DNA of 45,623 nucleotides from Pseudofrankia coriaricola (GTDB lineage Bacteria > Actinomycetota > Actinomycetes > Frankiales > Frankiaceae). Location: assembly GCF_001854805.1 (NCBI RefSeq), contig NZ_MBLO01000044.1:159-45781 (forward strand). The letters run 5' to 3'. Below the pieces are notes generated by a model. The model was not told where the DNA came from. It did not search any database and worked only from the letters and a program-made list of their open reading frames with translations. Within the stretch, counting starts at the first letter, position 1; every line of letters begins with the position of its first letter. Positions 7,187 through 25,248 of the stretch are shown here, one piece after another. The translations under genes were made by a program, and so were the position numbers.

Positions 7187-8301
7187 TGGTCATCACCGCC
7201 GGATAGCTCGGCGAACGCGCGCAGGTGCAGTCGCGCCGCAACAGCGCCGGCAAACCAGGTGAAGAAGCTGCTGTTCTCGGCCAGGTCGGCACGGACCGCG
7301 TCGCACCACTCCTGCCGGTCGAGCACCGCGAGATACTGCCGCACCAGGTCGTCGCGCTGCTCACTGGTGCAGCCGGATCGTTGCGCGTTCCGATCCGCCA
7401 GATGGTCCGCGATGGTCGCCGCGTCGACGTACCGGTCGACGGTTGGTGCCTGCCGGCCGAGGTGAGCCACGTGCGCGGCCAGGACGACGGGCGCTGGCGG
7501 ATAGTGCTCCAGGGTCATGCCCATGCCACCGCAATCGGCCATGATCTTGAGTAGTCGACCGGTGTGATCGAGCAGCTCATCGTCGACGTCGGTCCCGACA
7601 ATCGCTTCGTGCAGGTAGGCCACAGTGGCGACCTTGCCGGCGAAGTAGCCGTCGACGAAGTCGCCGTCGCAGGCATGGCGCAGCAGCCAGGGGCGTGCGT
7701 CGAAAGCACCGTGCCGACACAGTTCCTCGACGACGTAGACCCGCCCCCAACCCGCGACCCGCTGCGCCAGCCACAGCAGCGCTTGATCGCCGCCGGTGCG
7801 ACGTCGTAGCGCCTCGGCGGCCAACGGCCCGAACCGGTTCGACAGCAGGCCGATGGTCTGGATCAGCGGGATGTCTTCCTCGGCCCAGTCCGTGGCCAGC
7901 AGCGCCAACCCGACGGTGACGGAGCATCGATCGCCGCTGTGCCGTACCAGCCACCGGCCGGTCCGCCGCACCCGCTGCCGATCCGCGCGCAGCGCCGCCG
8001 CGGCGATGTGCTCGTTGTGGTGAATCGGGACGGACACGTCGTGGAACGCGTCGGCAAGTTCGCGTGGTACTGCGCCCGCCTTGCCGAGGTGCGCCTCGAG
8101 GATGGCGGCGACATCAGCCCCGTCGACCCGTCGATCCTTCGGTTCCCGCGATAGCTCTTGCTGACGGTGAAGTTCGTCGTCCGGATACGGCGCACCATCG
8201 CGCGGCAAAGGACGATCCGGATCCTGCCGGTGCAGACGCAGCGCGTGGTCGAACAGGGCGGTCCGAGATCCGAGCGATCCAGGCTCGGTCGTCGCGCTCA
8301 C
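7183..8301 (-). CDS. hypothetical 372-aa helical protein coupled to the ankyrin gene
   Basis: Family not recognised. It starts at GTG 8301 without a good Shine-Dalgarno, so the exact start is uncertain. The protein is mostly helical and Leu/Ala/Arg/Asp rich, with helix pairs such as WLVRHSGDRCSVTVGLALLA, IPLIQTIGLLSNRFGPLAAEAL and RPWLLRHACDGDFVDGYFAG that look like HEAT-type repeats. No catalytic motif or membrane segment is seen. The stop overlaps the start of the ankyrin gene by 4 bases. An effector/partner or immunity pair is possible from the coupling, but that is inference only. Confidence 0.6.
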   Translation of the reverse strand: MSATTEPGSLGSRTALFDHALRLHRQDPDRPLPRDGAPYPDDELHRQQELSREPKDRRVDGADVAAILEAHLGKAGAVPRELADAFHDVSVPIHHNEHIAAAALRADRQRVRRTGRWLVRHSGDRCSVTVGLALLATDWAEEDIPLIQTIGLLSNRFGPLAAEALRRRTGGDQALLWLAQRVAGWGRVYVVEELCRHGAFDARPWLLRHACDGDFVDGYFAGKVATVAYLHEAIVGTDVDDELLDHTGRLLKIMADCGGMGMTLEHYPPAPVVLAAHVAHLGRQAPTVDRYVDAATIADHLADRNAQRSGCTSEQRDDLVRQYLAVLDRQEWCDAVRADLAENSSFFTWFAGAVAARLHLRAFAELSGGDDQ

Positions 8302-8519
8302 CGGCGGACGGAGGACTCAATTCTTCCGATCATCATGGTGGGGATCATGCCAGCGTCGACCCGCAGGGGGCAAGTGCGCACCCCACGCCAGGCATTCTCG
8401 AGTCCCGGGTCGTCGCCCGCGAATGGCACAGATCCTCGAGCCGCGCCGACGCCGATGCCAAAACGATCACCTGTTTCCGATCTTGACAGTCTGGATGACC
8501 GACCCAAGCGGACTTTGTC

Positions 8520-9611
8520 TCAGGCCGCGGCGGGTTGGGCGGTGGCCTGGCGGCGCCATTCGGCGAGGTAGCGGCGGGCGGTGCCCGCGTGCAGGTTGAT
8601 GACGGGCCCGAGGTCGCGGGCGAGGGCGTAGTCGGTACGCGGGTCGCCGGGGGCGACGTCGCGCAGCAGGACGGCGGCGAGACGGGCGCGTTTGCTGCCG
8701 CGACGGGCGGTGCGCAGGGCCCGGGTGAGCACGGCAGGCGGGATCGGCTCTGGCGCCGCGTTCCACGCGGTGGCACTGTCCGGCCAGGGCACGTCGCGCC
8801 TGGTCGACGGTTGCACCGCCGCGTTCTCGGTGGGCGGGGTTGGCTCTGACCGCGGTGGGTCAGAGGCTTCCGGGCGCTTGGCGCCGTCGCGGCCTGTAGT
8901 GGTCGGTTCCGCGTGCTGCCTGCCGTGAAAATCGCGCTGTCGGTCCACGCTGCGCCCGGTCGTGCCGCCGGGGCTGTCGTCGTGGCCGGAGCCAGGCGAG
9001 TGGGCGCGGCTGGATGCGAGGTGTTGGGCGCTCCCCGGGCCGGGCCTGTGGGTGCTGGTGTGGCCGGCCGGTCGGGGGCGGGCCTTGCGGATCTGGTTCA
9101 TGAGCATTTCGTAGGACCCGATCAACGCCGCCGAAGGCCACGCGGCAATCAGCCGGGCCGCAAGATCAACCTCGGCGTGCATGACGTTCGCTGCGATGCT
9201 CGCGGCGGAGGCCAGGGCAAGCAGGGCGTAGGGCAACGGGGAGCGGCGGCGGCCGGCGCGGCTGTCGGCGAGCAGGGTCAGGCTCGCCGCGACGATCAGC
9301 CCGTCGACCGAGATCGGCACGATCGCCGCCGTCACCCGGTCCTCGCCATGCTCGCGGGCGACGCCGGCCATGTGTCTATAGGACACCGCGCCAGCGATGA
9401 GAGCGACGGTGACGACAGCGGCGACGGTCGCCAGACGGATCCACAGCTCCCCACTCCCCCACCGCGACCGGCGGACGGCTACGTCGCCCGGCCAGGTCGC
9501 CAGGGCGGTGGAAACGTCGATCGTAGGGGCCGTCGGAGCGACCTCGGCCAGGCGAGCCTGGGCGCCGGCTGGCTGGTCGGGGCGAGGCCGGGCAGAGGTT
9601 GGAGCGGTCAT
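8520..9611 (-). CDS. DUF2637 (SpdB-like) membrane protein
   Basis: A 363-aa protein beginning at ATG 9611. The N-terminal half matches DUF2637, the membrane proteins of actinomycete conjugative elements linked to intramycelial plasmid spread. Four hydrophobic segments are visible: about 59-78 (IRLATVAAVVTVALIAGAVS), 94-115 (ending VDGLIVAASLTLLA), 126-144 (PYALLALASAASIAANVM) and 152-171 (LIAAWPSAALIGSYEMLM). A long Pro/Ser/Thr/Gly-rich hydrophilic linker follows. The C-terminal 90 residues (from about PWPDSATAWN) look like a helix-turn-helix: RLAAVLLRDVAPGDPRTDYAL then TARRYLAEWRRQ. The role in conjugative spread is inferred from family and context. Confidence 0.8.
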   Translation of the reverse strand: MTAPTSARPRPDQPAGAQARLAEVAPTAPTIDVSTALATWPGDVAVRRSRWGSGELWIRLATVAAVVTVALIAGAVSYRHMAGVAREHGEDRVTAAIVPISVDGLIVAASLTLLADSRAGRRRSPLPYALLALASAASIAANVMHAEVDLAARLIAAWPSAALIGSYEMLMNQIRKARPRPAGHTSTHRPGPGSAQHLASSRAHSPGSGHDDSPGGTTGRSVDRQRDFHGRQHAEPTTTGRDGAKRPEASDPPRSEPTPPTENAAVQPSTRRDVPWPDSATAWNAAPEPIPPAVLTRALRTARRGSKRARLAAVLLRDVAPGDPRTDYALARDLGPVINLHAGTARRYLAEWRRQATAQPAAA

Positions 9612-9634
9612 GGCGACCTACCAGAGGTGTAGGG

Positions 9635-9851
9635 GTTCCTACAAAGGCAGTGCGAATCCGCGGGCCGATTCCGGACGCCCGCGTCGGAAGCTGGGGCGAA
9701 GGTCCCGAACGCGGCCGTACAGCGCACTGCCATCGCCGATGTCACCGTGGATGTCATCGCCGCAGACATCGCGCTGAACTGGGTCACCGCCGAGGGCACC
9801 CGCGCGAACATCGCCGGCCTCACCCGACCGCTCGGCAGTCTGGCGGGGTGA
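9635..9851 (+). pseudogene. remnant coding frame of unknown origin
   Basis: Plus-strand frame with G/C third positions that ends at TGA 9849-9851 and reads NAAVQRTAIADVTVDVIAA then DIALNWVTAEGTRANIAG and TRPLGSLAG. It is preceded by an in-frame TAG at about 9632 and has no usable start codon, so it is only the 3' part of a gene. It lies in the gap between two minus-strand genes. The family is not recognised. Confidence 0.4.
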
Positions 9852-9859
9852 TGACCGGG

Positions 9860-10750
9860 TCAGGCCGCGCGAGCCCGGGCTCGTCGCAGAAGGCTGCTGA
9901 TGGTGAGGGCACGTTCGGCGGTCTGGGTCGCCAGCCAGGTCAGCACGCATTCGTCCTGCGGCCCGAGCGACATCCCGGCGAGCGCGGCATGCAGCCTGTC
10001 GGCGAGGTCGTCGGCGGTGAGACCGACCAGCTCCCGGCCGGTCGAGCCGGTCGGGACCGCGTAGGCGAACGGCATCGGGTCACCGAGCGGTCCGGAACCC
10101 TTGGTTGGCAGTGGGGCGGGCAGGAAGACGAGCGTCGTCTCGACGTCGCCCAGAGCCTCGAGGAACCGGGCGGCGGCGGGGAGCTGTCGCAGCGTCGCGA
10201 TCACACCGGCGACGTCGTCGTCCGGTTCGACCATCACCTCGAATGTGCCTTCCGCGGTCAACCGCGCCCGGCCCGCACCGGCCACGGGCGCCGGGTGAGC
10301 GTCGAGTGCGTGGATCTCGGTCACGACGGTGGCGTACTGCTCGTCGAACACCACGCGGCCGGCCGCGGCGGTCGGCAGGTGCGACAGGTCCGGGACGAGC
10401 AGCAGCGCCTCAGGGTGGCGAGCGATCTCGTCGATCGCGAGGTGCAGTCCGGGGCGGTCGCCGTCGTCGGCGCTGGCCGGCCGGTCGACGTAGACCTCGA
10501 CCAGGTCGAGGCCGGCGCGTTCCGCGTGACCTGTGAGCCGTCCGTGTAGACCGTTGACGACGTCTTCGTCGTCAAAGACGCAGACGTAGCCGACTGCCGG
10601 GCGCGGTCGGGCCGGTGGCGTGGCCAGGCACGTCACCTTGGCCAGCGTCGCGGGTCCGGCCGGCTCCATCGGGGTTGGCGGGGTGTCGGGAGCGGCTACG
10701 GGCGTGGCCAAGGTGGGGGTGGGCAGGGAGCGTGGCACAGGATGGGCCAT
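9860..10750 (-). CDS. resolvase-fold-like protein without the catalytic serine
   Basis: About 296 aa from the ATG at 10750 (MAHPVPRSLPTP); GGAGG lies 5 bases upstream, which decides this start over the longer frame from 10840. The first 45 residues are a Pro/Thr/Ala-rich tail. The middle resembles the N-terminal domain of serine recombinases: AVGYVCVFDDEDVV, LVEVYVDRPASADDGDRPGL, then ALLLVPDLSHLP. The usual Y-x-R-x-S catalytic motif is replaced by YVCVF, so Ser and Arg are missing and recombinase activity is unlikely. The C-terminal half carries no known motif. It diverges from the GntR gene across a palindromic operator, so it is probably repressed by that regulator. Confidence 0.6.
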   Translation of the reverse strand: MAHPVPRSLPTPTLATPVAAPDTPPTPMEPAGPATLAKVTCLATPPARPRPAVGYVCVFDDEDVVNGLHGRLTGHAERAGLDLVEVYVDRPASADDGDRPGLHLAIDEIARHPEALLLVPDLSHLPTAAAGRVVFDEQYATVVTEIHALDAHPAPVAGAGRARLTAEGTFEVMVEPDDDVAGVIATLRQLPAAARFLEALGDVETTLVFLPAPLPTKGSGPLGDPMPFAYAVPTGSTGRELVGLTADDLADRLHAALAGMSLGPQDECVLTWLATQTAERALTISSLLRRARARAA

Positions 10751-10837
10751 CGCATCCTCCAGACCAAGGGGGTGCGGTAGACGGATACGCCAGCCTGTCG
10801 CGGGGTCGGCGGCCGGAGGCGTGGGCCGACAGTAACC

Positions 10838-10875
10838 CATGCCTTAAGGCATGTCTATGCGCCTTATGGCATGCA
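10838..10875. promoter_or_regulatory. double palindromic operator in the divergent promoter
   Basis: A perfect 16-bp palindrome, CATGCCTTAAGGCATG, lies at 10838-10853. An imperfect second copy (GCCTTATGGCATG at 10861-10873) follows 20 bp later, two helical turns away. Both sit between the resolvase-like gene and the GntR gene, the expected place for an autoregulatory GntR operator. Confidence 0.7.
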
Positions 10876-10902
10876 ATAGCGCTGCGGGGCAACGGTTCTC
10901 GC

Positions 10903-10908
10903 TATGGT
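10903..10908 (+). promoter_or_regulatory. possible -10 element of the GntR gene
   Basis: TATGGT lies 8 bases before the ATG at 10916. That spacing would put the transcription start at or next to the start codon, so the mRNA would be nearly leaderless. No clear -35 is visible. Confidence 0.35.
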
Positions 10909-10915
10909 CTAGGGC

Positions 10916-11674
10916 ATGTCGCCCAACGGGCCGCCCTACACACGGATCGCCGCGTCACTACGCGCCCAGATCGCCTCCGGCGAATATCCACCCGGATCCC
11001 GCCTCCCGCCCCACCGCGAACTCGCCCGCACCCACGCGGCCGCGCAGGAAACGATCAGACGAGCCATCGCCCAACTCCAAGCCGAAGGACTCATCGAGAC
11101 CCGCGGCCAGCACGGCACCTTCGTCCAGACCCGCCCCACGATCCGCCGGATCGCCAACGACCACTACCAGCGCCGACCAACCACCACGGGCGAACCCACC
11201 TCACCGTTCGCACACTCCGCGGAGGCCTCCGGCGGCCACGCCACCTGGGACCACGAGACCACCCGCGAGACCGCCGACGAAACCATCGCCACCCGACTCG
11301 CAATCCAGCCCGGTGACCCCGTCGTCGTCACCCGCTACCTCTACCGCTACGACGGAACACCCACCCAGACCGCCGTCTCCTGGGAACCCGCAGCCCTCAC
11401 AGCCGGAACACCGATCGAACTACCCGAAACAGGCACCGCCGTCGGCGTCATCCCCCGCTTCGACACAATCGGCCTGCCCATCGACTCCGTCACCGAGGAC
11501 ATCACCGCCCGGCCACCCACCCCCACCGAAGTCCAGACCCTCGCGCTACCCCCAGGCGTCGCCGTCCTCACGATGCGCCGCACCTACCATGCAGGCGAAA
11601 CACCGGTCGAGACCGCCGACATCGTCATGGCCGGCCACCGAAACCTGCTCACCTACCGCCACGCCGTCACCTGA
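10916..11674 (+). CDS. GntR-family regulator with UTRA domain
   Basis: A 252-aa DNA-binding repressor. Residues about 7-70 are a GntR winged helix: YTRIAASLRAQIASGEYPPG, SRLPPHRELARTHAAAQETI, RRAIAQLQAEGLIETRGQHG. Residues about 125-248 form a UTRA ligand-binding/dimer domain (AIQPGDPVVVTRYLYRYDGT, then DSVTEDITARPP). Regulators of this class (KorSA-like) control transfer and replication genes on actinomycete integrative elements. It reads away from a doubled palindrome that is probably its own operator. No Shine-Dalgarno is visible and a -10-like box sits close to the ATG, consistent with a leaderless message. Confidence 0.9.
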   Translation: MSPNGPPYTRIAASLRAQIASGEYPPGSRLPPHRELARTHAAAQETIRRAIAQLQAEGLIETRGQHGTFVQTRPTIRRIANDHYQRRPTTTGEPTSPFAHSAEASGGHATWDHETTRETADETIATRLAIQPGDPVVVTRYLYRYDGTPTQTAVSWEPAALTAGTPIELPETGTAVGVIPRFDTIGLPIDSVTEDITARPPTPTEVQTLALPPGVAVLTMRRTYHAGETPVETADIVMAGHRNLLTYRHAVT

Positions 11675-11889: not shown

Positions 11890-13344
11890 TCAAGCGGATG
11901 GCGCGGTCGAGTGTTCTTCGGATCGCCGGTCCCAGCGCATTACCAGCTGGCGGTCCTCTGGGACTACGACCACGTCGAAGCCAGCTTTCTCGGCCGCTCG
12001 CCTACTTGCGACATTGCTCTTGCGCATATGAAGCCACACTGTCGGATGGTCGCTCGCCAGCGCCGCGAGGCGGTACGCTTCGGTCCCTATCCCGTGCCCC
12101 CTACTGGCTTTGTTGAGCTCGATGGTGAGGCTCGGGTGCACCCCAATACCCGCCGTGTCCACAATATTGATCCAAATACGGCCCGCCCGCTTGTCGCCAT
12201 CAAAAATGTGCCAGAAACGCCCGCCCTGGTCTCCACCGCGCCCTGGGCTTCCCCTGCCGGCGACAAGCCGCACGTCCATGCTGTCGCCGTCGTCTCCCAT
12301 CGAACTAAGCTGAAGCCGTTCAAGACCTTGACAGATGTGGCCAACTGTACCCTGCCAGAACTCTGCAGGGAAGAACCCAGGCGACAGGGCTAGGTGCGTC
12401 GCAACTATCTTTCCCGCATGTGGCCGCAACGCCTCGATGACTTTGTCTATCTCGTCGTCTATGCGTGGCTGATCCGCGTCGTGGATACGAGCGTGCGAAC
12501 GCCAGTCACTGTCTCCGTCATAGCGGTTGGAGAAGTAGTCTGCGTCGATGTGCAAGAGGAGAAGGGCGTCCTCGGGCACGTTCGCCAGCCAGCGGTCTGG
12601 CCGTGAGGTGACCAGCAATTCGCATTCTGCGGGCTCATCGACCACCTTGCAGACCAATCTTGGCTGTCCCGACGAGAGTAGCCAGTCAGGTGCCGTATCG
12701 AGTTTTATGCCATAGCGACCGTCTGTTCGCGACCGGGGCGGTTCCTGCCGGAGATGGCGTATCTCCACGTTGTGCGACGACCACAATAGTGGGAGCAGGA
12801 AACTCCCAATTCCAACAGCGCCGCTCTCGATCGCTCCCACCAAGCTTTCGGGGTCTGCCAAGTCTACTGTGCGGCCTGTTATGAGGTCCCGCAATGCACC
12901 TCGTTCTACGCCGAGGCGGGGGCTACCCAGATCCTCATGATCGTCGATGTGGGCGATAACGATCTTGACCGCACTGCCGCATTCCCGGATAGCCTGAGAA
13001 AAAGTGTGTAAAGTCCACGCGTCCGAGAGGGAGACTTCTACGCCACACACGCGCCCGCGGGCTACTGGAGTGTCTCGGACACGGGTCAACCCGAAACGCG
13101 ACGACCACCATCTGAGGCCCTCTGTGAACCGCTCATCCACGTAGTAGGAGGCACGTGGCGGCGGACTCGGCGTTACGTGCCAGACGTCGCCGACCAGTTC
13201 GACGACCGGAACCCATTCCGCGAAGTAGTCTTGTAGGAAGTCGTCCCGCGCACGGGATTCTGCGGGGAGGCGGTCCTTCGGAATACGGACGACTGGCCGT
13301 GGTAGATCCTCCGTGCGTATTTTCCTGCCAGCCTTGGTCATCAC
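11890..13344 (-). CDS. UPF0489 (peptide-arginase-like) domain fused to a GNAT acyltransferase domain
   Basis: A 484-aa fusion protein. Residues about 95-350 carry the two metal-binding signatures of ureohydrolases in their UPF0489 form: HIDDHEDL at 132-139 (D-x-H-x-D) and HIDADYF at 265-271. The family includes enzymes that convert peptidyl Arg to ornithine in RiPP pathways (OspR is the example I recall). Residues about 376-472 are a GNAT domain: LTIELNKASRGHGIGTEAYR with the acyl-CoA loop RGHGIG at 415-420, and NVASRRAAEKAGF at 444-456. The start (GTG 13344 or ATG 13341) overlaps the stop of the radical SAM gene, so the two are coupled. The substrate is probably the Arg-ended precursor at 15548-15733: Arg to Orn, then N-acylation of Orn. 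The domain calls are firm; the substrate is inference. GC is low (33 of 60 bases at 12121-12180). Confidence 0.75.
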   Translation of the reverse strand: MMTKAGRKIRTEDLPRPVVRIPKDRLPAESRARDDFLQDYFAEWVPVVELVGDVWHVTPSPPPRASYYVDERFTEGLRWWSSRFGLTRVRDTPVARGRVCGVEVSLSDAWTLHTFSQAIRECGSAVKIVIAHIDDHEDLGSPRLGVERGALRDLITGRTVDLADPESLVGAIESGAVGIGSFLLPLLWSSHNVEIRHLRQEPPRSRTDGRYGIKLDTAPDWLLSSGQPRLVCKVVDEPAECELLVTSRPDRWLANVPEDALLLLHIDADYFSNRYDGDSDWRSHARIHDADQPRIDDEIDKVIEALRPHAGKIVATHLALSPGFFPAEFWQGTVGHICQGLERLQLSSMGDDGDSMDVRLVAGRGSPGRGGDQGGRFWHIFDGDKRAGRIWINIVDTAGIGVHPSLTIELNKASRGHGIGTEAYRLAALASDHPTVWLHMRKSNVASRRAAEKAGFDVVVVPEDRQLVMRWDRRSEEHSTAPSA

Positions 13345-15521
13345 CGCCCCGGCCGGCGCGCGTATTCAGTATACCTATGGTATAGCAGGTCGCACAGGTC
13401 GCGGCCTTGCGGGGTGAGCCGACATGCCTGCAGAGTTTCGAAACCGTCAGCTAGTCGCGCCAGGATGGCCGAGGTGTTTTCCTGCGCCCGTTCGCGTAAC
13501 TTTTCGGGTGCGCCGCCGTCCACCGCCCATGCCCAGAAGGACAGCAGTTCCACGAACACGAACACAGCGTGCAAAAGGCCAGACGGGGGTCGAGGTTCCT
13601 CACGCCAGGGCGAACGAACCAATGGCCTGTCGACCGAGACCAGTGAGATGGAACGCCCGATCAAGTAGAGCTTTTGGTGCCGATATTCGTGAATCAGACT
13701 GTCCGCCACGTCGAACAGCGCCGCAGCGTCCCAGCGTGCTGGCGGGGAGATATAGAGTCCGCCGGGAACCGTGTCGTCGGAGAAAGACACGCTCTTGTCA
13801 GGGTCGGCACTGAGATCTCGGATGAGTTGAATATCGCAGCACAGGCGTGTCAGTTCCGCGAGCATCGCCGGTGAATAAGCTCCAACTACCGCGAGTGACC
13901 GCCGAAGGTTCACGCGATGATCGTCGGCTTCCGCAGCGCTGGCCGGGAGGAACTCGATTGGCGGTCCGAATGGCATCTGCAGAAGCCGGTCTTCACGGTG
14001 AAGCGCCGGCTCCGTGCGAGGTTCGAGGTCGACAAGCCCAGCGATGTCGTCGAATCCCAGCTGTTCCGACGTGAGCACGGTGCCGTCGAGTGCTCGAAGG
14101 GGACGGCCCTCGGCATCGGCCTCACGGATACGCAACCATAACTGTGTGGATGCGTAGGTCGCCACGGCCCGCTTTACCTCCGGGCCTGCGAGCCGTAGGC
14201 GGCTGGCCGACTTGTCTTCGGGTCCGGCCGCGGCGACTGCGTCGGCAAGACGTCTATACGACGTTTCGCGCCATGCGGCGAGTATCCGCTCAAGCTCGCC
14301 CCGTCCTTCTGCGGAAGGAGCGTCGATTTCGTCCCAGTCTATCCCGCTGTAAGGTTCTGTTCGTAATGCTGCCTGCTCGTCATTGACTGTAGCGATCAGG
14401 CGTGCGCGCGCGTGTGTGATGAGCCCGAGCATCTCGCGGCAGTAGACGGTCGGGTTAGCGAACCCGCCACTACCCGATCCTGGTCGGTAGCGGTGGGCGA
14501 CCGCGCCGCCGCCGCAGACAGTCATTTCTGGGCAGGACCTGCACTGCGCCGAGAGCCCCTCGGGGCTAAGCAGGAAGGCATGCTGCTGGATCGTGGGTGA
14601 TTCTGCAGCCTCGGCGATGCCGGCGGTGGCTAGTGACAGATCGAGCCTCGTCCGCCCGTCGTAGGTGGTCTTCAGGACATCGAGATCATGCCAACCGCCG
14701 TCGGTCTCGACGGTTAGCAGGCTGACGTCACCGATTCCGAAGGCGTCCGTACTGCTCGGAAGGCCACAAAGGGACGCGAGCAGCGCATCAAAGGTCCTTA
14801 GCCGCAGCTGGGGGAACTCGTCAAACCAAGTATCGAACGCATGGGTCAGCCAGTCGGCATAGATCCCCAGCTCGCGGTCGCGCCCAGGTGGTGGCGTGGC
14901 GTGATTGGCATCAGGGAGTAGGAGATCCAGAGCCGGAATTCCTTGCGCGCCGAACCATCGCACCGTGTCCTGCGGGCTGGCTTCTGGGTCGATGACTGCG
15001 ATAACTCCAAGGAAGACGTCGGGTCGTGTTCTTAACAAGCGGAGCGCATTCATAACTCCCGCATGGCTCGGCTTCCCATTTCGCAGAGGCCTGTGTCGGT
15101 CATGGACCTCGGATGGGCCGTCGAGTGAAAGCGACACCCCTATTTCGGCTTTGCCGAATGCAGTGAGTGCTTCCTCATCGAGCAACACACCGTTGGTTTG
15201 GAGCCCTATATCTATCCTAGTGGCGGGCGCGACGGCCGCACGTATGCGCTTGGCAAGCTCGACAAGGCGAGGAACGCCGAGAAGCAGCGGCTCGCCGCCG
15301 TGAAAAATGACCGACATCCGAGGAACAGCGACGCGCTCCACGTACTCGGCCAGTCGGCGGGCGAGGAGATCGGTCGTCTCATACGAGATCAGACGAGGCT
15401 GATGGCGCCAACTTTGGTCAGCATGCTCATAAATGTAGCAATAATCGCACGCTAGGTTGCACCGCGAGGCAACCTTGACCAGCAGGCTAGTGATCTTTCG
15501 ACCAGCAATTTCCGCGGACAA
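13341..15521 (-). CDS. radical SAM/SPASM maturase fused to an HExxH (alpha-ketoglutarate type) domain
   Basis: A 726-aa RiPP maturase of FxsB-like type. The radical SAM cluster motif is C21-x3-C25-x2-C28 (SRCNLACDYCYIYEHADQSW), GGEP is at 75-78 and QTNG at 108-111. The SPASM region has C327, C330, C336 and C361 (CRSCPEMTVCGGGAVAHRY). The C-terminal part, from about 540, holds HEYRH at 611-615 within DSLIHEYRHQKLYLI; H651 or E658 could be the third metal ligand. Fused proteins of this kind are known to form three-residue cyclophanes and then beta-hydroxylate the peptide. The start is TTG 15521 with GAGGG seven bases upstream, 26 bp after the precursor stop. It forms an operon with the precursor and the arginase-GNAT gene. 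Confidence 0.85.
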   Translation of the reverse strand: MSAEIAGRKITSLLVKVASRCNLACDYCYIYEHADQSWRHQPRLISYETTDLLARRLAEYVERVAVPRMSVIFHGGEPLLLGVPRLVELAKRIRAAVAPATRIDIGLQTNGVLLDEEALTAFGKAEIGVSLSLDGPSEVHDRHRPLRNGKPSHAGVMNALRLLRTRPDVFLGVIAVIDPEASPQDTVRWFGAQGIPALDLLLPDANHATPPPGRDRELGIYADWLTHAFDTWFDEFPQLRLRTFDALLASLCGLPSSTDAFGIGDVSLLTVETDGGWHDLDVLKTTYDGRTRLDLSLATAGIAEAAESPTIQQHAFLLSPEGLSAQCRSCPEMTVCGGGAVAHRYRPGSGSGGFANPTVYCREMLGLITHARARLIATVNDEQAALRTEPYSGIDWDEIDAPSAEGRGELERILAAWRETSYRRLADAVAAAGPEDKSASRLRLAGPEVKRAVATYASTQLWLRIREADAEGRPLRALDGTVLTSEQLGFDDIAGLVDLEPRTEPALHREDRLLQMPFGPPIEFLPASAAEADDHRVNLRRSLAVVGAYSPAMLAELTRLCCDIQLIRDLSADPDKSVSFSDDTVPGGLYISPPARWDAAALFDVADSLIHEYRHQKLYLIGRSISLVSVDRPLVRSPWREEPRPPSGLLHAVFVFVELLSFWAWAVDGGAPEKLRERAQENTSAILARLADGFETLQACRLTPQGRDLCDLLYHRYTEYARRPGR

Positions 15522-15547
15522 GCGCGAACCCTCGTCCCAGGCCGCCG

Positions 15548-15733
15548 TCAGGATCGGTTGTGTCGATGATGCATGCGGTCGTACGAGGTAATTTCGTGGT
15601 GATTGTCGGCCGCCGTAGCCGTGTCATAGAGGCGCGCAAGCGCGGGATGCTCCGATCGGTGGGCGACGACAGCCTCCCTGAGGTTCTCCGCGTCGCCGGT
15701 AAGCACTTCCGAAGACTGCATGACGCTATCCAC
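15548..15733 (-). CDS. putative RiPP precursor peptide with three aromatic-x-Arg units
   Basis: A 61-aa peptide from GTG 15733 (MDSVMQSSEVLTG), chosen because GAGGGGG lies six bases upstream. The next ATG, at 15721, would give 57 aa. Residues 1-33 look like an acidic helical leader (DAENLREAVVAHRSEHPALA). The C-terminus is SYDRMHHRHNRS. It divides into Y51-D-R53, Met54, H55-H-R57, H58-N-R60, Ser61: three consecutive aromatic-x-Arg triplets, the arrangement expected for three-residue cyclophane substrates. The three Arg also suit the arginase-like enzyme two genes downstream. It is 26 bp upstream of the maturase gene on the same strand. It does not end in the FxSxx motif of classical FxsA peptides. 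The assignment rests on position, size and the C-terminal pattern. Confidence 0.65.
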   Translation of the reverse strand: MDSVMQSSEVLTGDAENLREAVVAHRSEHPALARLYDTATAADNHHEITSYDRMHHRHNRS

Positions 15734-16157
15734 GCCATCCCCCTCGACTTGGCTGCGAAGACACTGTACTCCCCTGGCGTCGTACTTGGTATGTCTTTCG
15801 CCCACATCACCCGGTCAGTCCGCGAGTCGTGACCACCCACCGGTCCACGGTGCCGCGGCTCGGCGAGATCAGACCCGGACGACCGCGACAGTGCCAACCC
15901 GTCCCGCGTCACCGCCCGGAAGGCCGCCTCCACCGCCAACATCGTGATCATTAGGCCGGCTAGCAGCTTGTCAACCAGCTCAGCACGTTCGGCGTGAGTA
16001 GCAGTCTGCCGGGGCCTCACGTCCGAGGGCGCCCGGCAAGACCAGGGCTCACCTGCTCAACGAATGTGGCTGTGAGAGGCCGTGAGCAGGCACGGTAACC
16101 CGCTCGTCCTCATGGATCGGTGGACGCGGCGCTCGGCGGGGGATCGGATAGGCGGAT
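15734..16157. other. upstream region of the RiPP operon; possible gene remnant
   Basis: This gap must hold the promoter of the minus-strand RiPP operon. A TACAGT box near 15764-15769 could be a -10, but no clear -35 precedes it. From 16020 leftward to about 15830 a minus-strand frame starting at GTG has coding-like third positions (AERAELVDKLLAGLMITMLA), then merges into the precursor's other frame. It is not recognised and is probably a remnant. Confidence 0.3.
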
Positions 16158-16766
16158 ATGGGTTCTGTCGACGGCACTGCCGGGTCTGGGGTTGGTGGCA
16201 TGTCCGCTGCTGCGGAGTTCCAGCGTTCGGTGGCCGAGACGGCGCAGGCACGCACCGATGACCTTCTTGCTGTGTACGCCGACGCCTACGGGGCGGAGGT
16301 GGGCGATCGGAAGGTGACGGCGTTCGCGGACCGGCTCGCGCGAGCACAGCTGCGTCCGGGCTTTGAGGTCGCGTTCGCGTCGACGCCTGGCGCCGGGCTG
16401 GTCGGTTTCACGTTCGGCTATCCGCTGCCGGCCGGTGACACGCACTGGTGGGTGGGCCTGCGTCCTGGGCCGGAGGCCGGGTTCGTGGTCGAGACCGGAT
16501 CGCGGACGTTCGTACTCGCCGAGATCGAGGTACGCCGAGCCTTCCAGGGCGGTGGCGTGGGTCGCGGGCTGCATGACCTGCTGTTGGCGGGGCGTTCGGA
16601 GGAACGCGCGACGCTGGCGGTGAACCCGGCAGCCAACACGTCGCACGCGATCTATCGGAGCTGGGGCTGGGAGCTGGCTGGCCAGGTTCCTGGTAGCTCG
16701 GGTGACTACTTCGACGCCTATGACCTGTTCGTGATCTCGCTGAGCAGCTCGGCAGGGCGGCGGTAG
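16158..16766 (+). CDS. GNAT-family N-acetyltransferase
   Basis: A 202-aa protein (or 188 aa from the second ATG at 16200). The GNAT fold is clear in the second half: TFVLAEIEVRRAFQGGGVGR carries the acetyl-CoA motif QGGGVGRGLHD, followed by ERATLAVNPAANTSHAIYRS and WGWELAGQVPG. The first half is more variable, with LVGFTFGYPLPAGDTHWW. It lies between the two RiPP operons on the opposite strand and overlaps the end of the TPR gene tail-to-tail by 49 bp. The substrate is unknown. It could be self-resistance or a tailoring enzyme, but nothing in the sequence decides this. Confidence 0.8.
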   Translation: MGSVDGTAGSGVGGMSAAAEFQRSVAETAQARTDDLLAVYADAYGAEVGDRKVTAFADRLARAQLRPGFEVAFASTPGAGLVGFTFGYPLPAGDTHWWVGLRPGPEAGFVVETGSRTFVLAEIEVRRAFQGGGVGRGLHDLLLAGRSEERATLAVNPAANTSHAIYRSWGWELAGQVPGSSGDYFDAYDLFVISLSSSAGRR

Positions 16767-17890
16767 AGCCGGAGCTGTTCGTCAAGGTCCCGGACGGCGG
16801 CGGTACGTTTCCAGGGCTCAAGGGCCTGGCGCAGGTGGACGATGCGGTCGTTGATGCGCCCGCTGCTGTTGGCCATGGTCAGCTTCGCGATCTCGACGAT
16901 GTGCGGGCAGGCGGCGGGGCCGTCGCCCTGGTGGATGATGGCCTCGGCCTGCATCGTCTGGGTCATGACCCGGTTGTGCAGGTTGGTCGGGTTGATGAGC
17001 GGCAAGGAGCGGCTGGCCGCGTCGAGCGCCGCGGCGGGCCGGCCGAGCAGCAGGCTTGCCTCGGCCTCGGTACCCAGGCGGAAGGACTCGTCGAAGAAGT
17101 ACCAGCGGTCAGCGGCCGGGTCGTCGTCGCGGATCGTCGCGGTGGCAGCGTGCTCCAGGGCCAACGCCTCGTCGCAGCCGCTGTGCTGGTCGTCGTCATG
17201 GACATAGGCCCGGACGGCGACGTCGGCGGCGTAGGCCACCGCTCGGGGGTTGCCGGTGCGTCTGGCCCAGGTCTGTGCGGCGACGGCGTGGTCGATGCCG
17301 ACGCGAGGTTGTCCGGTCCAGGTCGCCAGATGGCTCATCGTGCACAGGACGTAGGTGACCAGGTCGGTGTCCTGGGCCGCATGTGCGGCCGCCCTGGCCT
17401 CGTCGTAGTAGTGGCTCGCCGTGCGGTAGTCGCCGAGGTTGAACAGCAGCCAGCCGGCCAGCTGGGTCAGCTCCGCGTAGACGGACCGTGCCCGGCGGGC
17501 CGGCGCGGCCGGCGGGAGGCTGCGCAGGATCGCGGCGAGCACGTCGCGTTCGGCCATGACGCACTGAAGAGCGGCAGCTGGTCCGAGGACGTCGCCGTGA
17601 CGTCGACAGTCCGCGATGACGGTCTCTGCCCGGTCAAGGGTGGCGGCGTCGAGCCGGCTTGGGTCGTCGAGCACACGGGCGAGCCGCTGCTGGTCGTCGC
17701 TGATGCGTTCGAACACGGGTGCCGCGTCGGCGAGCGCGAACGCGCCGCTGAGCTGGAACAGCAGCGCCCGGCGGTCGACGTCCGCGCCCAGCCGCTCTCC
17801 CCACATGGTCACCGCCTGCGCGAGCTCACCAGCACGAGCGTTTTCGTCGTTCGCGCGGAGACCGGGACCGGCCTGTGGTTCCACGGTCAT
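16718..17890 (-). CDS. TPR-repeat protein at the end of the lanthipeptide operon
   Basis: 390 aa from ATG 17890 (MTVEPQAGPG). The longer open frame upstream is a shadow of the PIG-L gene. Helical pairs typical of TPR repeats cover about residues 100-340: YAELTQLAGWLLFNLGDYRT, ASHYYDEARAAAHAAQDTDL, AVAYAADVAVRAYVHD. They resemble the C-terminal parts of actinobacterial XRE/TPR regulators, but no N-terminal helix-turn-helix is present. It is probably a protein-binding or regulatory partner. It lies 47 bp after the PIG-L gene and is the last gene of the leftward operon. Confidence 0.7.
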   Translation of the reverse strand: MTVEPQAGPGLRANDENARAGELAQAVTMWGERLGADVDRRALLFQLSGAFALADAAPVFERISDDQQRLARVLDDPSRLDAATLDRAETVIADCRRHGDVLGPAAALQCVMAERDVLAAILRSLPPAAPARRARSVYAELTQLAGWLLFNLGDYRTASHYYDEARAAAHAAQDTDLVTYVLCTMSHLATWTGQPRVGIDHAVAAQTWARRTGNPRAVAYAADVAVRAYVHDDDQHSGCDEALALEHAATATIRDDDPAADRWYFFDESFRLGTEAEASLLLGRPAAALDAASRSLPLINPTNLHNRVMTQTMQAEAIIHQGDGPAACPHIVEIAKLTMANSSGRINDRIVHLRQALEPWKRTAAVRDLDEQLRLYRRPAELLSEITNRS

Positions 17891-17937
17891 TTCGTCTGTT
17901 CTCCCATCCGCGCGATAGTGAACTGGCGGTGAGTCGG

Positions 17938-18573
17938 TCACAACTGGGTGGCGCCTGGTAGGCGTCCCAGGAGGGGGATCGGAGTGAACAGTTCTGCGTA
18001 TTGGGTACCGATGCGAGCGCCCCAGAGCCGGGCGAGGGTGTCGGCCATGGGGCCGAAGTGGTCGTTGATCGGCTGGGTGACGCTGTGGGCGGCGAGTGCG
18101 CGCATCTTCGTCGAGTACGTCGTGGTGATGTCGATGATCGTGGCGGCGGGTACGGGACCGGCCAGGGTCAGGGAGTTGTAGCTGTCGCAGCTGTAGAGCC
18201 GCCGCGGGAACCCGGTACTGATCACCGCGTCGGGGACGGCGGCGAGAACGGCCTCCGCGACGCCGCGGTGGTGCGGGTGGACGTCGGTGGCCGGGTGGGT
18301 GACGACGATCTCGGGGCGTAGCCGGGCTATCAGTGCGCTGATCGCTTCCGCGATGGGATGAGCGTCGAGGATGTGGAGGTGGGCGCCGAGGGTGTCGGCT
18401 CCAGCTGTCGCCTCGGCCAGGCGGGCTGGTTCGGCGGGTGGGATCGCGATGGTGGCTTGGGCGGCTTCGGCGTGTAGGGCGATGGTTCCGCCGGCCCACA
18501 GTTCGGCATCGTCGGGGTGGGCCATCACGGCGAGCAGCGTCCCGGGCCGTCGAGGATCGCCGGGCCGGCTCAT
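17938..18573 (-). CDS. PIG-L family deacetylase
   Basis: 211 aa from ATG 18573, which overlaps the TGA of the nuclease gene (ATGA). The zinc-site motif AHPDDAE is at 18-24, preceded by strand TLLAVM, and the second motif HPHH is at 99-102 (TDVHPHHRGVAEAVL). These are the metal ligands of LmbE/PIG-L N-deacetylases, which remove acetyl groups from GlcNAc-containing substrates such as mycothiol precursors or antibiotics. The substrate here is unknown. Coupling to the lanthipeptide operon suggests a tailoring or resistance role, but this is inference. Confidence 0.85.
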   Translation of the reverse strand: MSRPGDPRRPGTLLAVMAHPDDAELWAGGTIALHAEAAQATIAIPPAEPARLAEATAGADTLGAHLHILDAHPIAEAISALIARLRPEIVVTHPATDVHPHHRGVAEAVLAAVPDAVISTGFPRRLYSCDSYNSLTLAGPVPAATIIDITTTYSTKMRALAAHSVTQPINDHFGPMADTLARLWGARIGTQYAELFTPIPLLGRLPGATQL

Positions 18574-19472
18574 GAGGTCGTCGGCGTGGCGGAGACGCCG
18601 GGAGACCACCAGAGGCCGAGTTTGGTGATGATCTCGCCGGGGATCGGCAGCGGTGGGATGGGCAGTCCGCTGGGGACGTGCGGCAGGGGCACGTCACAGT
18701 GCAGGCGGATCATGTCGCGCCAGGCGAGGACCTGGGGCCAGGCGGCCTGGATGGCTGCTCCTCGGGTGCCCCCGAGTCGGCCGGAAGTGGGTAGGTGGTC
18801 GAGGGTGAGTCCGTCGGCGAGCAGCGCGGCGGCGGTTTTGGTGCCGACCCCGCGGATGCCGGGGATGTTGTCGGCTGGGTCGCCGGCGAGGGCGCGCAGG
18901 TCGGGGAACTGGGCGGGGGTGACGCCGTACCGTGCGAGGACGTCGGCCGGGCCGACGAGCCGGGTGCCGGGGCGGCGGGCGGTGTTCAGGATGCGGACCG
19001 ACCCGCCCTGGCCTGCGGGTTCGGCGAGGAGCTGGTAGTAGTCCTGGTCGGTCGACAGGATCAGCACGTCCCGGGTGAGCCGGGCCGTGTGGGTGAGGGT
19101 GGCGATGATGTCGTCGGCCTCGGCGTCGGCGAGTTCGAGCCAGGTGACGGCGAACAGGTCGAGGCCGGTCTTGATGTCGGCGAGCGCGCCCAGTGGCCGG
19201 CGGGCTTGGTCGTCGCTGGGACGGTTGGCCTTGTAGCCGGGGTCGGTGGCCTGCCTGCTGGCCGCGCCGTGCTCGCCGTCGAAGACGACGAACACCTCGG
19301 GCCAGCTGCCCAGCTCGGCGGTGACGGCCTTGCGGAGCAGCGCGAAGAACATGAACTGGGTCGTGATGTCGCGCCGCGCCGAGTCACGGGAGTAGATCTG
19401 GGCCGGGGTCCCGAAGCAGGCGCGGAAAAGCAGGTTGTGCCCGTCGACGAGCAGAAGAGGTACCGGGGACAT
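18570..19472 (-). CDS. 5'-3' exonuclease of the PolA N-terminal type
   Basis: A 300-aa stand-alone 5' nuclease. All family motifs are present: LLLVDGHNLLFRA, VFVVFDGEHGAASR, DPGYKANRP, the acidic cluster LADAEADDIIATL, LILSTDQDYYQLL, and the helix-3-turn-helix GDPADNIPGIRGVGTKTAA. It should cleave 5' flaps or 5' ends of DNA or RNA-DNA. It starts at ATG 19472, 118 bp after the SpaB_C gene, and its stop overlaps the PIG-L start. A DNA-processing enzyme is an unusual passenger in a lanthipeptide operon. The catalytic Asp residues look intact, so it is not a remnant. Confidence 0.9.
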   Translation of the reverse strand: MSPVPLLLVDGHNLLFRACFGTPAQIYSRDSARRDITTQFMFFALLRKAVTAELGSWPEVFVVFDGEHGAASRQATDPGYKANRPSDDQARRPLGALADIKTGLDLFAVTWLELADAEADDIIATLTHTARLTRDVLILSTDQDYYQLLAEPAGQGGSVRILNTARRPGTRLVGPADVLARYGVTPAQFPDLRALAGDPADNIPGIRGVGTKTAAALLADGLTLDHLPTSGRLGGTRGAAIQAAWPQVLAWRDMIRLHCDVPLPHVPSGLPIPPLPIPGEIITKLGLWWSPGVSATPTTS

Positions 19473-19590
19473 CGATCACCACACCGCTTTCAGGAATGCG
19501 TCAGCGACAGTGGTGGGCCGATAGTCCCGTGACCGGTAGTACGCAGCGCCACACGTTGCGTCGCAACATACCGGATCAGACGACGGCCGC
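19473..19590. promoter_or_regulatory. intergenic spacer with a short inverted repeat
   Basis: The 118 bp between the SpaB_C gene and the nuclease gene contain GTTGCG-T-CGCAAC at 19555-19567, which could be a small operator. The minus strand also has a coding-like end (YRPTTVADAFLKAVW then TGA) without a start codon, possibly a remnant. Confidence 0.25.
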
Positions 19591-20634
19591 TCATGGGCCG
19601 GTCGGTGGCGCGGAAGGCCGGGCGCGTTGGGGCTTCGGCAGCGAGCTGGGCCCGAGGATCGCCCGGTGGGCGGCGTGGGCCAGGAGCGCCTGGTGGCGGG
19701 CGGCCAGGCCGATCCGGTTCCAGTGAAAAAGCACGTGGTAGCTAAGAACTTCGCGTAGACCTCGGTGGAGTCGGCCGGTCCGGTTCGCCTCAGCGAGGCG
19801 TCGGCCCGCCTGGGTGAACGCGCTGGCCCAGGCCGCGTGGGTCGCGGCCGGGCCGCCAGCTCCGAAGATCGGCTCGTTGGGTGCGGTGTCGGCTCTGAGG
19901 AAGACGGTGACGGTCTCGCTGAGCGCGGCGACCTGGCCGGCGGAGGCATCGACAGGAAGGCGACGCTCCGCGCAGACCCGGGCCCAGACATCGCCGCGCT
20001 CGTACCATTCGAGGCCGGCACCGTGTAGGAACGCGCCGCACAGCAGGATCGACAGCTCCCGACGCCCGGGCCGGCTCACGGCGGGGGTCGCGGCGAGGCA
20101 CAGGATGGCGCGGCTGTCCGCGGTGAACAGCTCGTGGGCGGCGTCCATCGCCAGCCCACCACCGAAGGCCGCCGTCTCGGCTTCGTAGATCCCTGGCCAC
20201 CACGCATCGAGGTGCCCAGCCGCCGTGAGGCGATCGAGCGCGGCACCGACTCCGGCGGCGTCGGCCGGCCCCGGCCCGGAGGGACGTAGCCGCAGCCGCC
20301 AGCAGGGATGCTTCCGGATGAACCACCAGGCGTCGAGCATGCCGCTTTGTTCGGCGTCGAGCAGGATCGGCAGGAGGTGGGTCGCCGCGACCGCGTCGGC
20401 GCGGCCCCAGTCGCGGAAGCGGAGGTAGACCTGCTGCCAGCCGGCGGCCCGGTGGGCGGTGAGTGCGGCACGCCCGGCAGCGCGGTATATCTCGGCGGCG
20501 GCCTGAAGGTCCGCCGTTTCAAGTCCGGTGGCTGCGGTGGTCAGGCCGACGGCTCGTCGGCCGGTCAGTAGCGACAGAACCGCTTGCTCGGTGGAGTCGA
20601 CGTTCATGGGTTCGGCTAGCTGATCAGCAGGCAT
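19591..20634 (-). CDS. stand-alone SpaB_C / thiopeptide-type lanthipeptide biosynthesis protein
   Basis: 347 aa from ATG 20634 (MPADQLAEP), preferred because GGGATGGGACGC precedes it; ATG 20607 would give 338 aa. It shows the hallmarks of the LanB elimination domain: QQVYLRFRDWGRA, WWFIRKHPCWRLRLRPSG, YEAETAAFGGGLAMDAAHEL followed by FTADSRAI, and a helical C-terminus with RLHRGLREVLSYHVLFHWNR. This domain removes glutamate from glutamylated Ser/Thr to give dehydroamino acids. The full-length LanB in the same operon already has such a domain; a second, separate copy is usual in FxLD-type clusters. It overlaps the end of the LanC gene by 19 bp. Confidence 0.85.
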   Translation of the reverse strand: MPADQLAEPMNVDSTEQAVLSLLTGRRAVGLTTAATGLETADLQAAAEIYRAAGRAALTAHRAAGWQQVYLRFRDWGRADAVAATHLLPILLDAEQSGMLDAWWFIRKHPCWRLRLRPSGPGPADAAGVGAALDRLTAAGHLDAWWPGIYEAETAAFGGGLAMDAAHELFTADSRAILCLAATPAVSRPGRRELSILLCGAFLHGAGLEWYERGDVWARVCAERRLPVDASAGQVAALSETVTVFLRADTAPNEPIFGAGGPAATHAAWASAFTQAGRRLAEANRTGRLHRGLREVLSYHVLFHWNRIGLAARHQALLAHAAHRAILGPSSLPKPQRARPSAPPTGP

Positions 20635-21848
20635 GCGTCCCATCCCGAGATTGGCAGGGTGTCGGCGGCAGCGGTGTGGAGCGCCAGCGCCGTGCCGGCG
20701 AGGCCGTTCAGGAAGCCGCGGTGCCCGGGTCCTTGGGCGGGCGCCGCGTGGGTGGCTCGGAGGAGTTCGCCTACCAGCTGTGGAAGGCGCGTGCTTAGGG
20801 CACCTGTGGGGTCGTCGGCGGCGGCGCGACGGACGGTCTGGTAGAGCCCAGCGTGTCCATGGCAAAGCCCTGGATCGGTGAGGAGGGTCTGCTCGGCCGG
20901 GTCGTCGAGGCAGGCCAGCAGCGCCTGTTCGTAGGCGTGGCGGCGCTGCGGATCGCCGAGCGCCAAGGCGGCGAGTTGGCCTGCGCGGGCGATGCCCGGG
21001 GTGCCGTAGCACCAGCCCGGCCGGCCTGGCTGGTTCCGCGCGCAGTGGCTGGAGCGGAGTTCGGCGAGATTGATGTGCGGTGGCCAGAACGGTCCCGTGG
21101 GGCCGTCAATCTGCCAGCTGTCGAGCCACGCACAGATCGTCGCGATTGCTTCGAGGTGACCGTTGACGGTGAGCCCGCGGCGGGCGGCCTGGCTGAGCAG
21201 CGCGAGCGGGCCTGCGATTCCGTGGGCGACGCCGATGTTCGCGTGGCCGCCGCGGAAGGCGGCGGCCTGGCCGCGCTGCGGGTCGTGGCCGACCCACCAG
21301 CCGGGCAGGGTGTCGCCGTCGACAGTCAGCGTCCGGGTCAGCGCGACGAGGTAGGTCAGGACATGCTCCGTCGCGCTGCTGGTGGGAGCGCGACGTAGTA
21401 GGAGGGCGCCAAGTCCGGTCAGGCCGAGGAACAGGTCGTACTCGGCGAAGTCCGCCAGTCTGCCCGCTTTGATCCGTTCCAGGGCGCGGCGGGATCGGCG
21501 ATGGGCCAGCCGTGCCACGACCTCGTCGAGCGCGGCGAGGGCCTCCCGGTAGCGAGCGGATGGCCCGGCCGCGGCATCGAGGACGAACGCGATGGCGGGG
21601 GCACCGAGGTAGAGCCCGGCCGTGTCGTGATCGCTGACGGGCCGTGCGGTGGCGTCGAGCAGGTGGCGGTGCGCGCGTTGCCACCTGTCGAGGCCGACTC
21701 GGGCGCGCTCGATGAACAGCAGTGCGGTTCCGACGCTGCCGCTGGACAGCGCCTGTCCGGGAGGGTTGGTGGAGGCGGGCGGCGCCGGCTGCGCGAGCCG
21801 TCGAGCCTGCTGGTCGGCCTCACGCAACAGATCGTCGCTGGTGCTCAT
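20616..21848 (-). CDS. LanC-like lanthionine cyclase
   Basis: A 410-aa cyclase that should add Cys thiols to dehydroamino acids, forming lanthionine rings in the FxLD precursor. The zinc ligands are C280 (GWCYGTPGIARAG) and C329-H330 (LCHGHAGLYQTV). The conserved GGHANIGVAHGIAGPLALL lies at 200-218. Length and motifs are normal for the family. The start ATG 21848 overlaps the end of the lanB gene by 29 bp, so translation is coupled. No signal peptide is present; the enzyme is cytosolic. Confidence 0.93.
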   Translation of the reverse strand: MSTSDDLLREADQQARRLAQPAPPASTNPPGQALSSGSVGTALLFIERARVGLDRWQRAHRHLLDATARPVSDHDTAGLYLGAPAIAFVLDAAAGPSARYREALAALDEVVARLAHRRSRRALERIKAGRLADFAEYDLFLGLTGLGALLLRRAPTSSATEHVLTYLVALTRTLTVDGDTLPGWWVGHDPQRGQAAAFRGGHANIGVAHGIAGPLALLSQAARRGLTVNGHLEAIATICAWLDSWQIDGPTGPFWPPHINLAELRSSHCARNQPGRPGWCYGTPGIARAGQLAALALGDPQRRHAYEQALLACLDDPAEQTLLTDPGLCHGHAGLYQTVRRAAADDPTGALSTRLPQLVGELLRATHAAPAQGPGHRGFLNGLAGTALALHTAAADTLPISGWDACLLIS

Positions 21849-24957: not shown

Positions 24958-24976
24958 TCCCGCCTTCCTTCGCTGC

Positions 24977-25009
24977 CGTGGCCGTCCCGGGCAGCCCGGG
25001 ACGGCCACG
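24977..25009 (-). terminator. strong hairpin between precursor and lanB (probable attenuator)
   Basis: CGTGGCCGTCCCGGG pairs perfectly with CCCGGGACGGCCACG across a CAG loop: 15 bp of stem, nearly all GC. It lies 53 bp after the precursor stop and 19 bp before the lanB start. In lantibiotic operons such partial terminators keep precursor mRNA in excess over the enzymes. There is no U-tract, as is common in actinobacteria. Confidence 0.85.
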
Positions 25010-25062
25010 CTTCCTCCGATCGGCCTGGGGCTACTGATCGTGGGTCAGCCGGCGCAGCCCAT

Positions 25063-25248
25063 CTACTGCTGTTCGCAGGTCACGCCCGCGCTCTCGGCGG
25101 TGGCGGAGCAGTTGTCGCTGGTGCAGTCGGCCGAGTCGAAGCCGCTGGCGGGCAGGCCGGCGGTCACGATGCTCACGTCCAGGTCGAACTCGTCGAACCC
25201 GAGCTCGTCGGCGTCGAGCGACGGCACCGTGGTGGTGGGGGCGGTCAT
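25063..25248 (-). CDS. FxLD-family lanthipeptide precursor
   Basis: A 61-aa precursor, start ATG 25248 overlapping the methyltransferase TGA (ATGA). The leader holds the name-giving motif at F21-D-L-D24 (EFDLDVSIV), embedded in an acidic helix. The core, from about residue 30, is rich in Ser/Thr with three Cys (C42, C47, C58): DCTSDNCSATAESAGVTCEQ. Thus up to three lanthionine rings can form. Asp residues 38, 41 and 45 are candidates for the isoaspartyl-type methyltransferase. The peptide is Asp/Glu-rich and acidic overall. A strong hairpin follows the gene. Confidence 0.92.
   Translation of the reverse strand: MTAPTTTVPSLDADELGFDEFDLDVSIVTAGLPASGFDSADCTSDNCSATAESAGVTCEQQ

What the first reader, a model, noticed from the sequence alone, without database searches (positions are those of the whole stretch)
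11890..15733. Undescribed-looking RiPP operon: aromatic-x-Arg precursor, radical SAM-HExxH fusion, arginase-GNAT fusion
Three coupled minus-strand genes. The precursor ends SYDRMHHRHNRS, which splits into YDR, HHR, HNR: three three-residue units, each aromatic first and Arg third. The maturase has a radical SAM/SPASM part suited to three-residue cyclophanes and an HExxH part suited to beta-hydroxylation. The third gene joins a UPF0489 arginase-like domain to a GNAT. Predicted route: link the Tyr/His ring to the Arg side chain, hydroxylate, convert Arg to Orn, acylate Orn. I know of cyclophane-hydroxylase fusions and of RiPP arginases with acyltransferases, but not of all three activities in one operon.
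Basis: partly seen in the sequence, partly recalled or inferred. Interest (0 to 1): 0.95.

Follow-up and report, generated by a model that had tools for sequence, protein, structure and literature searches.

The report
Three-ring RiPP operon with arginase-like enzyme
This operon makes a ribosomal peptide whose ring-forming chemistry is already known from a cyanobacterium, but it also carries two untested enzymes that probably turn the ring-locked arginines into acylated ornithines, and the same peptide end recurs almost unchanged in very distant bacteria.

The parts
15548..15733 (-). YhhA/ChlA-type precursor peptide (61 aa, GTG start, GAGGGGGA just upstream by eye)
   Evidence: NF041705 44.4 bits, cut-off 36
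15551..15592 (-). conserved C-terminal core ITSYDRMHHRHNRS: units YDR, HHR, HNR
   Evidence: identical in 26 of 40 precursors, one change in 11 more
13341..15521 (-). YhhB: cyclophane-forming radical SAM/SPASM maturase fused to aKG-HExxH hydroxylase (726 aa)
   Evidence: NF041707, TIGR04269, TIGR04267 over cut-off; ChlB and ChlH chains E 1.2e-129 and 4.2e-55
14391..15494 (-). radical SAM/SPASM domain (residues 10-377), CxxxCxxC at 21-28
13389..13904 (-). aKG-HExxH domain (residues 540-711); HEYRH at 13677-13691
11890..13344 (-). arginase-fold plus GNAT fusion protein (484 aa)
   Evidence: model pLDDT 91.3; fold matches
12307..13050 (-). OspR-like arginase-fold domain (residues 99-346); D134, H136, D138, D267, D269 kept, His12 of OspR not
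11899..12279 (-). GNAT domain (residues 356-482), RGHGIG acyl-CoA loop
11500..15999 (.). stretch of lower G+C (0.60-0.64 in 1-kb windows against 0.68-0.74 in windows at 8000-11499 and 16000-19999), suggests horizontal arrival

Best explanation
The operon is a far-diverged member of the YhhA/YhhB (chl-type) triceptide RiPP family with two late tailoring steps. 1) The leader brings the precursor to YhhB, whose radical SAM part joins the aromatic ring of Tyr1, His5 and His8 to C-beta of Arg3, Arg7 and Arg10, giving three three-residue cyclophanes (known chemistry for YhhB and ChlB; three rings on this core is inferred from its three units). 2) The fused aKG-HExxH part then beta-hydroxylates middle residues (reported on Asp and His for ChlH; here Asp2 and His6). 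3) The OspR-fold domain removes urea from one or more of the ring-locked Arg side chains, leaving ornithine (inferred). 4) The GNAT passes an acyl group, most simply acetyl, to the freed delta-amine (inferred). 5) An unlinked protease cuts the leader (none in the operon). In many proteobacterial loci a family-2 glycosyltransferase would add a sugar; in cyanobacteria and others a DUF483-like protein takes part; the window has neither.
Against: OspR's metal ligand His12 has no counterpart: residue 108 is D or E and 109 S, T, A, N or C in 30 of 30 rows. No UPF0489 model matched the window protein and relatives only below cut-off. L034 has Lys in place of Arg7, so unit 2 need not be an arginase target. 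L066, a YhhA cluster with no arginase hit, still has a GNAT; L068 has the arginase but no GNAT hit; two Clostridia loci have the arginase without HExxH or GNAT hits. No product is known to me, no protease or exporter was found in the operon.
Confidence: 0.6

Rival explanations
1. The OspR-fold domain no longer hydrolyses arginine: it is a carrier or scaffold that binds the cyclophane peptide, or a hydrolase with another substrate; the GNAT then acylates another group (the new beta-hydroxyl, an N-terminus, or Lys).
For: One of six metal ligands replaced in 30 of 30 rows; GNAT without arginase in L066; strong divergence from every UPF0489 model.
Against: The other five metal ligands are invariant over about 24-41% identity to the window protein, unusual for a dead enzyme; an acidic residue invariant beside the lost His could still bind metal.
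Confidence: 0.27
2. The operon is a decaying horizontal import in this genome and makes nothing.
For: G+C dip; only this copy among 396 genomes of its phylum with the precursor model over cut-off and none of the 392 other genomes of the class sample with the arginase; relatives with broken copies exist: L014/L007 (IS21 inside yhhB and a stop inside the arginase frame), L020 (yhhB start and precursor missing), L022 (arginase frame broken).
Against: All three frames are open, metal and cluster motifs intact, core unchanged with only synonymous differences from ChlA.
Confidence: 0.08
3. Arg hydrolysis happens first and YhhB then links the rings to ornithine, as Arg modification precedes cross-linking in biphenomycin biosynthesis.
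For: Biphenomycin order: arginase before cross-link (passages).
Against: YhhB alone is reported to link to Arg; ChlB structures hold unmodified ChlA; OspR prefers already modified substrate.
Confidence: 0.15

Closest known systems
chl system (ChlA, ChlB-ChlH) of cyanobacterium PCC 7702 / Chlorogloeopsis; Morishita 2024 and Ruel 2025, cited through PMC12636437, not held
   Same: identical 14-residue core; same rSAM-HExxH fusion; the genome (L039) also has an arginase-fold gene and a GNAT gene next in line
   Different: 53% (rSAM), 33% (HExxH), 37% (arginase), 52% (GNAT) identity; arginase and GNAT fused in the window, separate in L039; window lacks the DUF483-like gene
YhhA/YhhB triceptides (NF041705, NF041707)
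   Same: both over cut-off
   Different: two family members found without arginase, L065 and L066
Peptide arginases pfam12640 (OspR, FlmR, OhkR, BipC, PbsE)
   Same: fold; DxHxD and DxD(Y/F)F motifs
   Different: EEHxE motif absent; not on the list of precursor types in PMC12703449 (parts 1-2 of 5 read)
Biphenomycin clusters (bip, bpm)
   Same: rSAM cross-linker, HExxH hydroxylase, UPF0489 arginase together
   Different: B12-rSAM, MNIO-made ortho-Tyr, biaryl link, different precursor; no acetyltransferase: that word does not occur in PMC12707348
Selidamides (phaeornamide)
   Same: peptide arginase, aKG hydroxylase and GNAT on Orn (passages)
   Different: lanthionine ring, proteusin precursor, long acyl chain

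Membership tests
YhhA cyclophane RiPP | NF041705 over curated cut-off | tested here: met
   44.4 bits against 36
YhhA cyclophane RiPP | aromatic-x-Arg units at the C-terminus | tested here: met
   YDR, HHR, HNR; 40 of 40 precursors have three aromatic-x-basic units
YhhB / FxsB maturase | NF041707 and TIGR04269 over cut-off; rSAM cluster motif | tested here: met
   451.1/445 and 450/370 bits; CxxxCxxC
aKG-HExxH peptide hydroxylase | TIGR04267 over cut-off; HExxH | tested here: met
   108.1/40 bits; HEYRH 611-615
Peptide arginase (pfam12640) | Pfam UPF0489 gathering score | tested here: not met
   no match at E 0.1 for the window; L013 21.5 and L042 14.3 bits against 27
Peptide arginase (pfam12640) | DxHxD motif | tested here: met
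   DDHED; D134, H136, D138 in 30 of 30
Peptide arginase (pfam12640) | LDIDLDYFSC motif, DxD ligands | tested here: met
   LLHIDADYFS; D267, D269 in 30 of 30; first D of LDID is His here
Peptide arginase (pfam12640) | EEH(N/H)EAF motif, His ligand of MnA | tested here: not met
   no His at 107-111 in 30 of 30 rows; residue match to OspR is by position, good to about one residue
Peptide arginase (pfam12640) | arginase fold | tested here: met
Peptide arginase (pfam12640) | Arg to Orn on a precursor, Mn dependence, homodimer | not testable with these tools
   -
GNAT acyltransferase | Pfam GNAT model; Q/RxxGxG/A loop | tested here: met
   PF13302 28.2/25.4, PF00583 24.2/20.7; RGHGIG
Biphenomycin-type RiPP | MNIO and B12-rSAM, FxF-type precursor | tested here: not met
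   operon holds three genes, none MNIO; core has no Phe

The most novel reading that the evidence does not exclude
A new branch of peptide arginases with an altered metal site works only on arginines already locked in three-residue cyclophanes, and a GNAT caps the products, giving a tris-cyclophane of N-acyl-ornithines. The finished molecule is nearly invariant over at least four named phyla plus the window's, unlike warfare peptides, and travels on mobile, defence-rich islands, so it may be a shared small-molecule part of anti-phage or element-maintenance functions rather than a species-specific antibiotic.
Probability: 0.22. Interest if true: 0.85.

Novelty: new variant of a known kind. Interest (0 to 1): 0.6.

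Why it matters
If true, it completes a published but apparently unfinished pathway: the chl genome itself carries the arginase-fold and GNAT genes next to ChlB. It would give the first arginase acting on cyclophane-locked Arg and a test of how far the arginase metal site can change. Practical point: Arg to Orn (-42.0218 Da) and acetylation (+42.0106 Da) differ by 0.011 Da, so both steps together are invisible at nominal mass and could have been missed. The near-constant core with one copy per genome in 33 of 34 genomes searched makes the biological role a directly testable question.

Tried and rejected
Chance frame for the precursor: rejected. A second YhhA copy in the own genome: none. Plain UPF0489 membership: rejected on Pfam cut-off and one missing motif. 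PF12640 search of 19 handles and the own genome to obtain ordinary peptide arginases for a residue alignment gave nothing, with the control also silent in 14 of 14 genomes, so it shows no absence; a search with an OspR fragment in plasmids and viral contigs also gave nothing. Arginase relatives in viral contigs: none by tblastn. First genome-contig scan with the single protein: none; the alignment found 35 loci. No DNA match of the operon in E. coli genomes. Radical SAM hits in phage records cover under half of the maturase and are distant. sigma-70-like promoters and terminators: no more than shuffles. tRNA in the window: none. DUF483-like protein: confident model (pLDDT 94.9) but no PDB match at E 0.001. 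Tree of YhhB: window is a long branch with no supported partner. DUF2637 protein against plasmids to name the host: no match. Papers: JACS 2022 triceptide paper, Nat Chem 2024 and JACS 2025 chl papers are not held, so I cannot say whether they mention the arginase or GNAT.

Statement on print: searches for arginase with cyclophane, RiPP and radical SAM, YhhB, peptide arginase/UPF0489, HExxH with radical SAM, YhhA, triceptide with arginase, triceptide with hydroxylase, cyclophane with HExxH, ChlB and selidamide with GNAT listed no paper whose title or start of abstract joins YhhA/YhhB or triceptides with an arginase; the listed papers were not all opened.

Rows dropped: A2 leaves out L014 and L022 (broken arginase frames), L031, L039, L041, L045 and the five plasmid loci (tool rule on structure jobs). 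PADLOC test: six largest of 127 flank proteins dropped for the residue cap; 120 of 191 control proteins kept by my own thinning by hand; the 1e-76 threshold was chosen after seeing the control's best value (2.5e-75).
Full report
What is there. The three frames lie as described and are coupled: 26 bases between the precursor stop and the maturase start, overlapping stop and start between maturase and third gene. G+C is 0.60-0.64 across the operon against 0.68-0.74 around it. A tblastn with the glycosyltransferase, DUF483-like and methyltransferase genes of relatives finds none in the window.

Precursor and maturase are known kinds. NCBIfam names them YhhA and YhhB with a mod_HExxH domain. Characterised YhhB links C3 of Tyr and C2 of His to C-beta of Arg (PMC11002830, passages). 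The nearest solved chains are ChlB (E 1.2e-129) and ChlH (E 4.2e-55). The locus L039 of cyanobacterium PCC 7702 encodes exactly those chains (375 of 375 residues; 347 residues of ChlH outside the tag), and its precursor matches the ChlA chains, one of them called ChlA R3A mutant. Its last 14 residues are those of the window. PMC12636437 (passages) reports that the rSAM-fused HExxH protein beta-hydroxylates Asp and His and needs a preinstalled cyclophane; it cites ChlB as a multiple cyclophane synthase. That the rings number three on this core, and that the hydroxylated residues are Asp2 and His6, I infer from the sequence.

The third gene. tblastn in plasmids found five records, four Rhizobium and one Novosphingobium; four of the five carry an annotation, and three of these list both yhhA and yhhB, one yhhB only. 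A genome scan with the arginase alignment found 35 loci, one of them the same record as a plasmid hit (L014 and L007). With one more cyanobacterium reached through the precursor (L068) that makes 41 loci with the window, from Cyanobacteriota, alpha-, beta- and gammaproteobacteria, one Hymenobacter and two Clostridia MAGs. L011 and L039 are near-identical, and a few others are close pairs. YhhB was found in 41 of 41, the HExxH part in 39 (not in the two Clostridia; fused to YhhB in 38, cut off by an IS21 element in L014), the GNAT in 37 (not in the two Clostridia, L068, or L045, which ends at a contig edge), fused to the arginase in 3 (window, L009, L015). In L008 YhhB and arginase lie in one open frame. 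A precursor was found in 40 of 41 (not in L020): core identical in 26, one N-to-S change in 10, one R-to-K in L034, and 3 to 5 changes in L037, L042 and L044. All 40 keep three aromatic-x-basic units. These loci were fetched by the arginase in all but one case, so they do not show that every YhhA cluster has it.

The reverse test. Searches with the precursor model gave, over its cut-off: 1 of 396 genomes of the window's phylum, the window's own; 2 of 385 for the class of L015, the centre and G1045; 1 of 245, 1 of 247 and 2 of 234 for the groups of L042, L037 and L011, the centre each time plus G1673. Of the two independent genomes over the cut-off, G1673 (L068) has the arginase and G1045 (L065, end TAYNRTYHRHNR) has none; G1105, below the cut-off (L066, end TFDRTHHRHNR), has none either. 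Both arginase-less loci carry a 2OG-oxygenase-like gene, over the Pfam cut-off in L066 only, and L066 has a GNAT. Two weak matches, G405 and G815, show none of the operon genes. The arginase protein itself was found in the own genome only, among 35 genomes of the order and 393 of the class.

Other conserved genes. In 41 loci examined for neighbours (window, L014 and L039 not among them; L007, L065, L066, L068 included) a family-2 glycosyltransferase occurs in 25, a DUF483-like protein with conserved Cys in 14, a methyltransferase-like protein in 4. The DUF483 match is below Pfam's cut-off, and its confident model has no PDB match at E 0.001.

Setting. Flank proteins of 20 loci, operon region removed, matched 89 PADLOC families at E 1e-15 (121 proteins), control stretches of the same contigs 21 (120 proteins). 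At 1e-76 the flanks still matched 19 families, about ten proteins (IetS twice, IetA, pAgo, a helical REase partner, E1-E2 and four PDC candidates), the controls none (best control 2.5e-75). Family counts are inflated by related models, the threshold is post hoc, and controls were my own choice. Novosphingobium's copy lies beside a Piwi protein, integrases and plasmid genes; the window has a type I restriction system 16-22 kb from the operon. This is a hint at defence or mobile islands, not at function.

Verdict. An ortholog of a known three-ring RiPP system with two conserved but untested late steps. I lower the claim to a new variant of a known kind, with the arginase step as the open, testable question.

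Noticed in passing
window 20616-26522 (-): Class I lanthipeptide genes: LanC-like 20616-21848, LanB 21820-25008, and a PCMT-type methyltransferase 25245-26522, a second RiPP cluster in the same window.
   Followed up: no
window 31965-37892 (-): Complete type I restriction-modification set: HsdR, HsdS, HsdM.
   Followed up: partly
window 8520-11674: DUF2637 protein, a resolvase-like protein below the Pfam cut-off, and a GntR/UTRA regulator just downstream of the operon: perhaps part of an integrative element.
   Followed up: no
L034 5840-5900 region: Halomonas precursor reads YDR-HHK-HNR: Lys replaces Arg in unit 2, a natural substitution that already has an amine.
   Followed up: no
L037 6795-9062: Hymenobacter has two arginase-fold genes in tandem after YhhB.
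   Followed up: no
L042 5665-9574, L044 1190-5192: Clostridia variant: core YSR-HNR-HNR, second radical SAM gene between precursor and YhhB (Pfam-tested in L042 only), arginase and DUF483-like gene, no HExxH or GNAT hit.
   Followed up: partly
L065, L066: YhhA clusters without arginase, cores NRTYHRHNR and DRTHHRHNR lacking the last Ser, with 2OG-oxygenase-like genes; L066 has two yhhB genes.
   Followed up: partly
L007, L009 (8600-13440): His-Xaa-Ser (hxs) peptide system genes directly after the yhh operon on two Rhizobium plasmids.
   Followed up: no
flanks of 20 loci (L011-L043 subset): More phage-defence family matches than in control stretches of the same contigs.
   Followed up: partly
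L014/L007, L020, L022: Broken copies of the operon: IS21 in yhhB plus a stop in the arginase frame; missing precursor and yhhB start; broken arginase frame.
   Followed up: no
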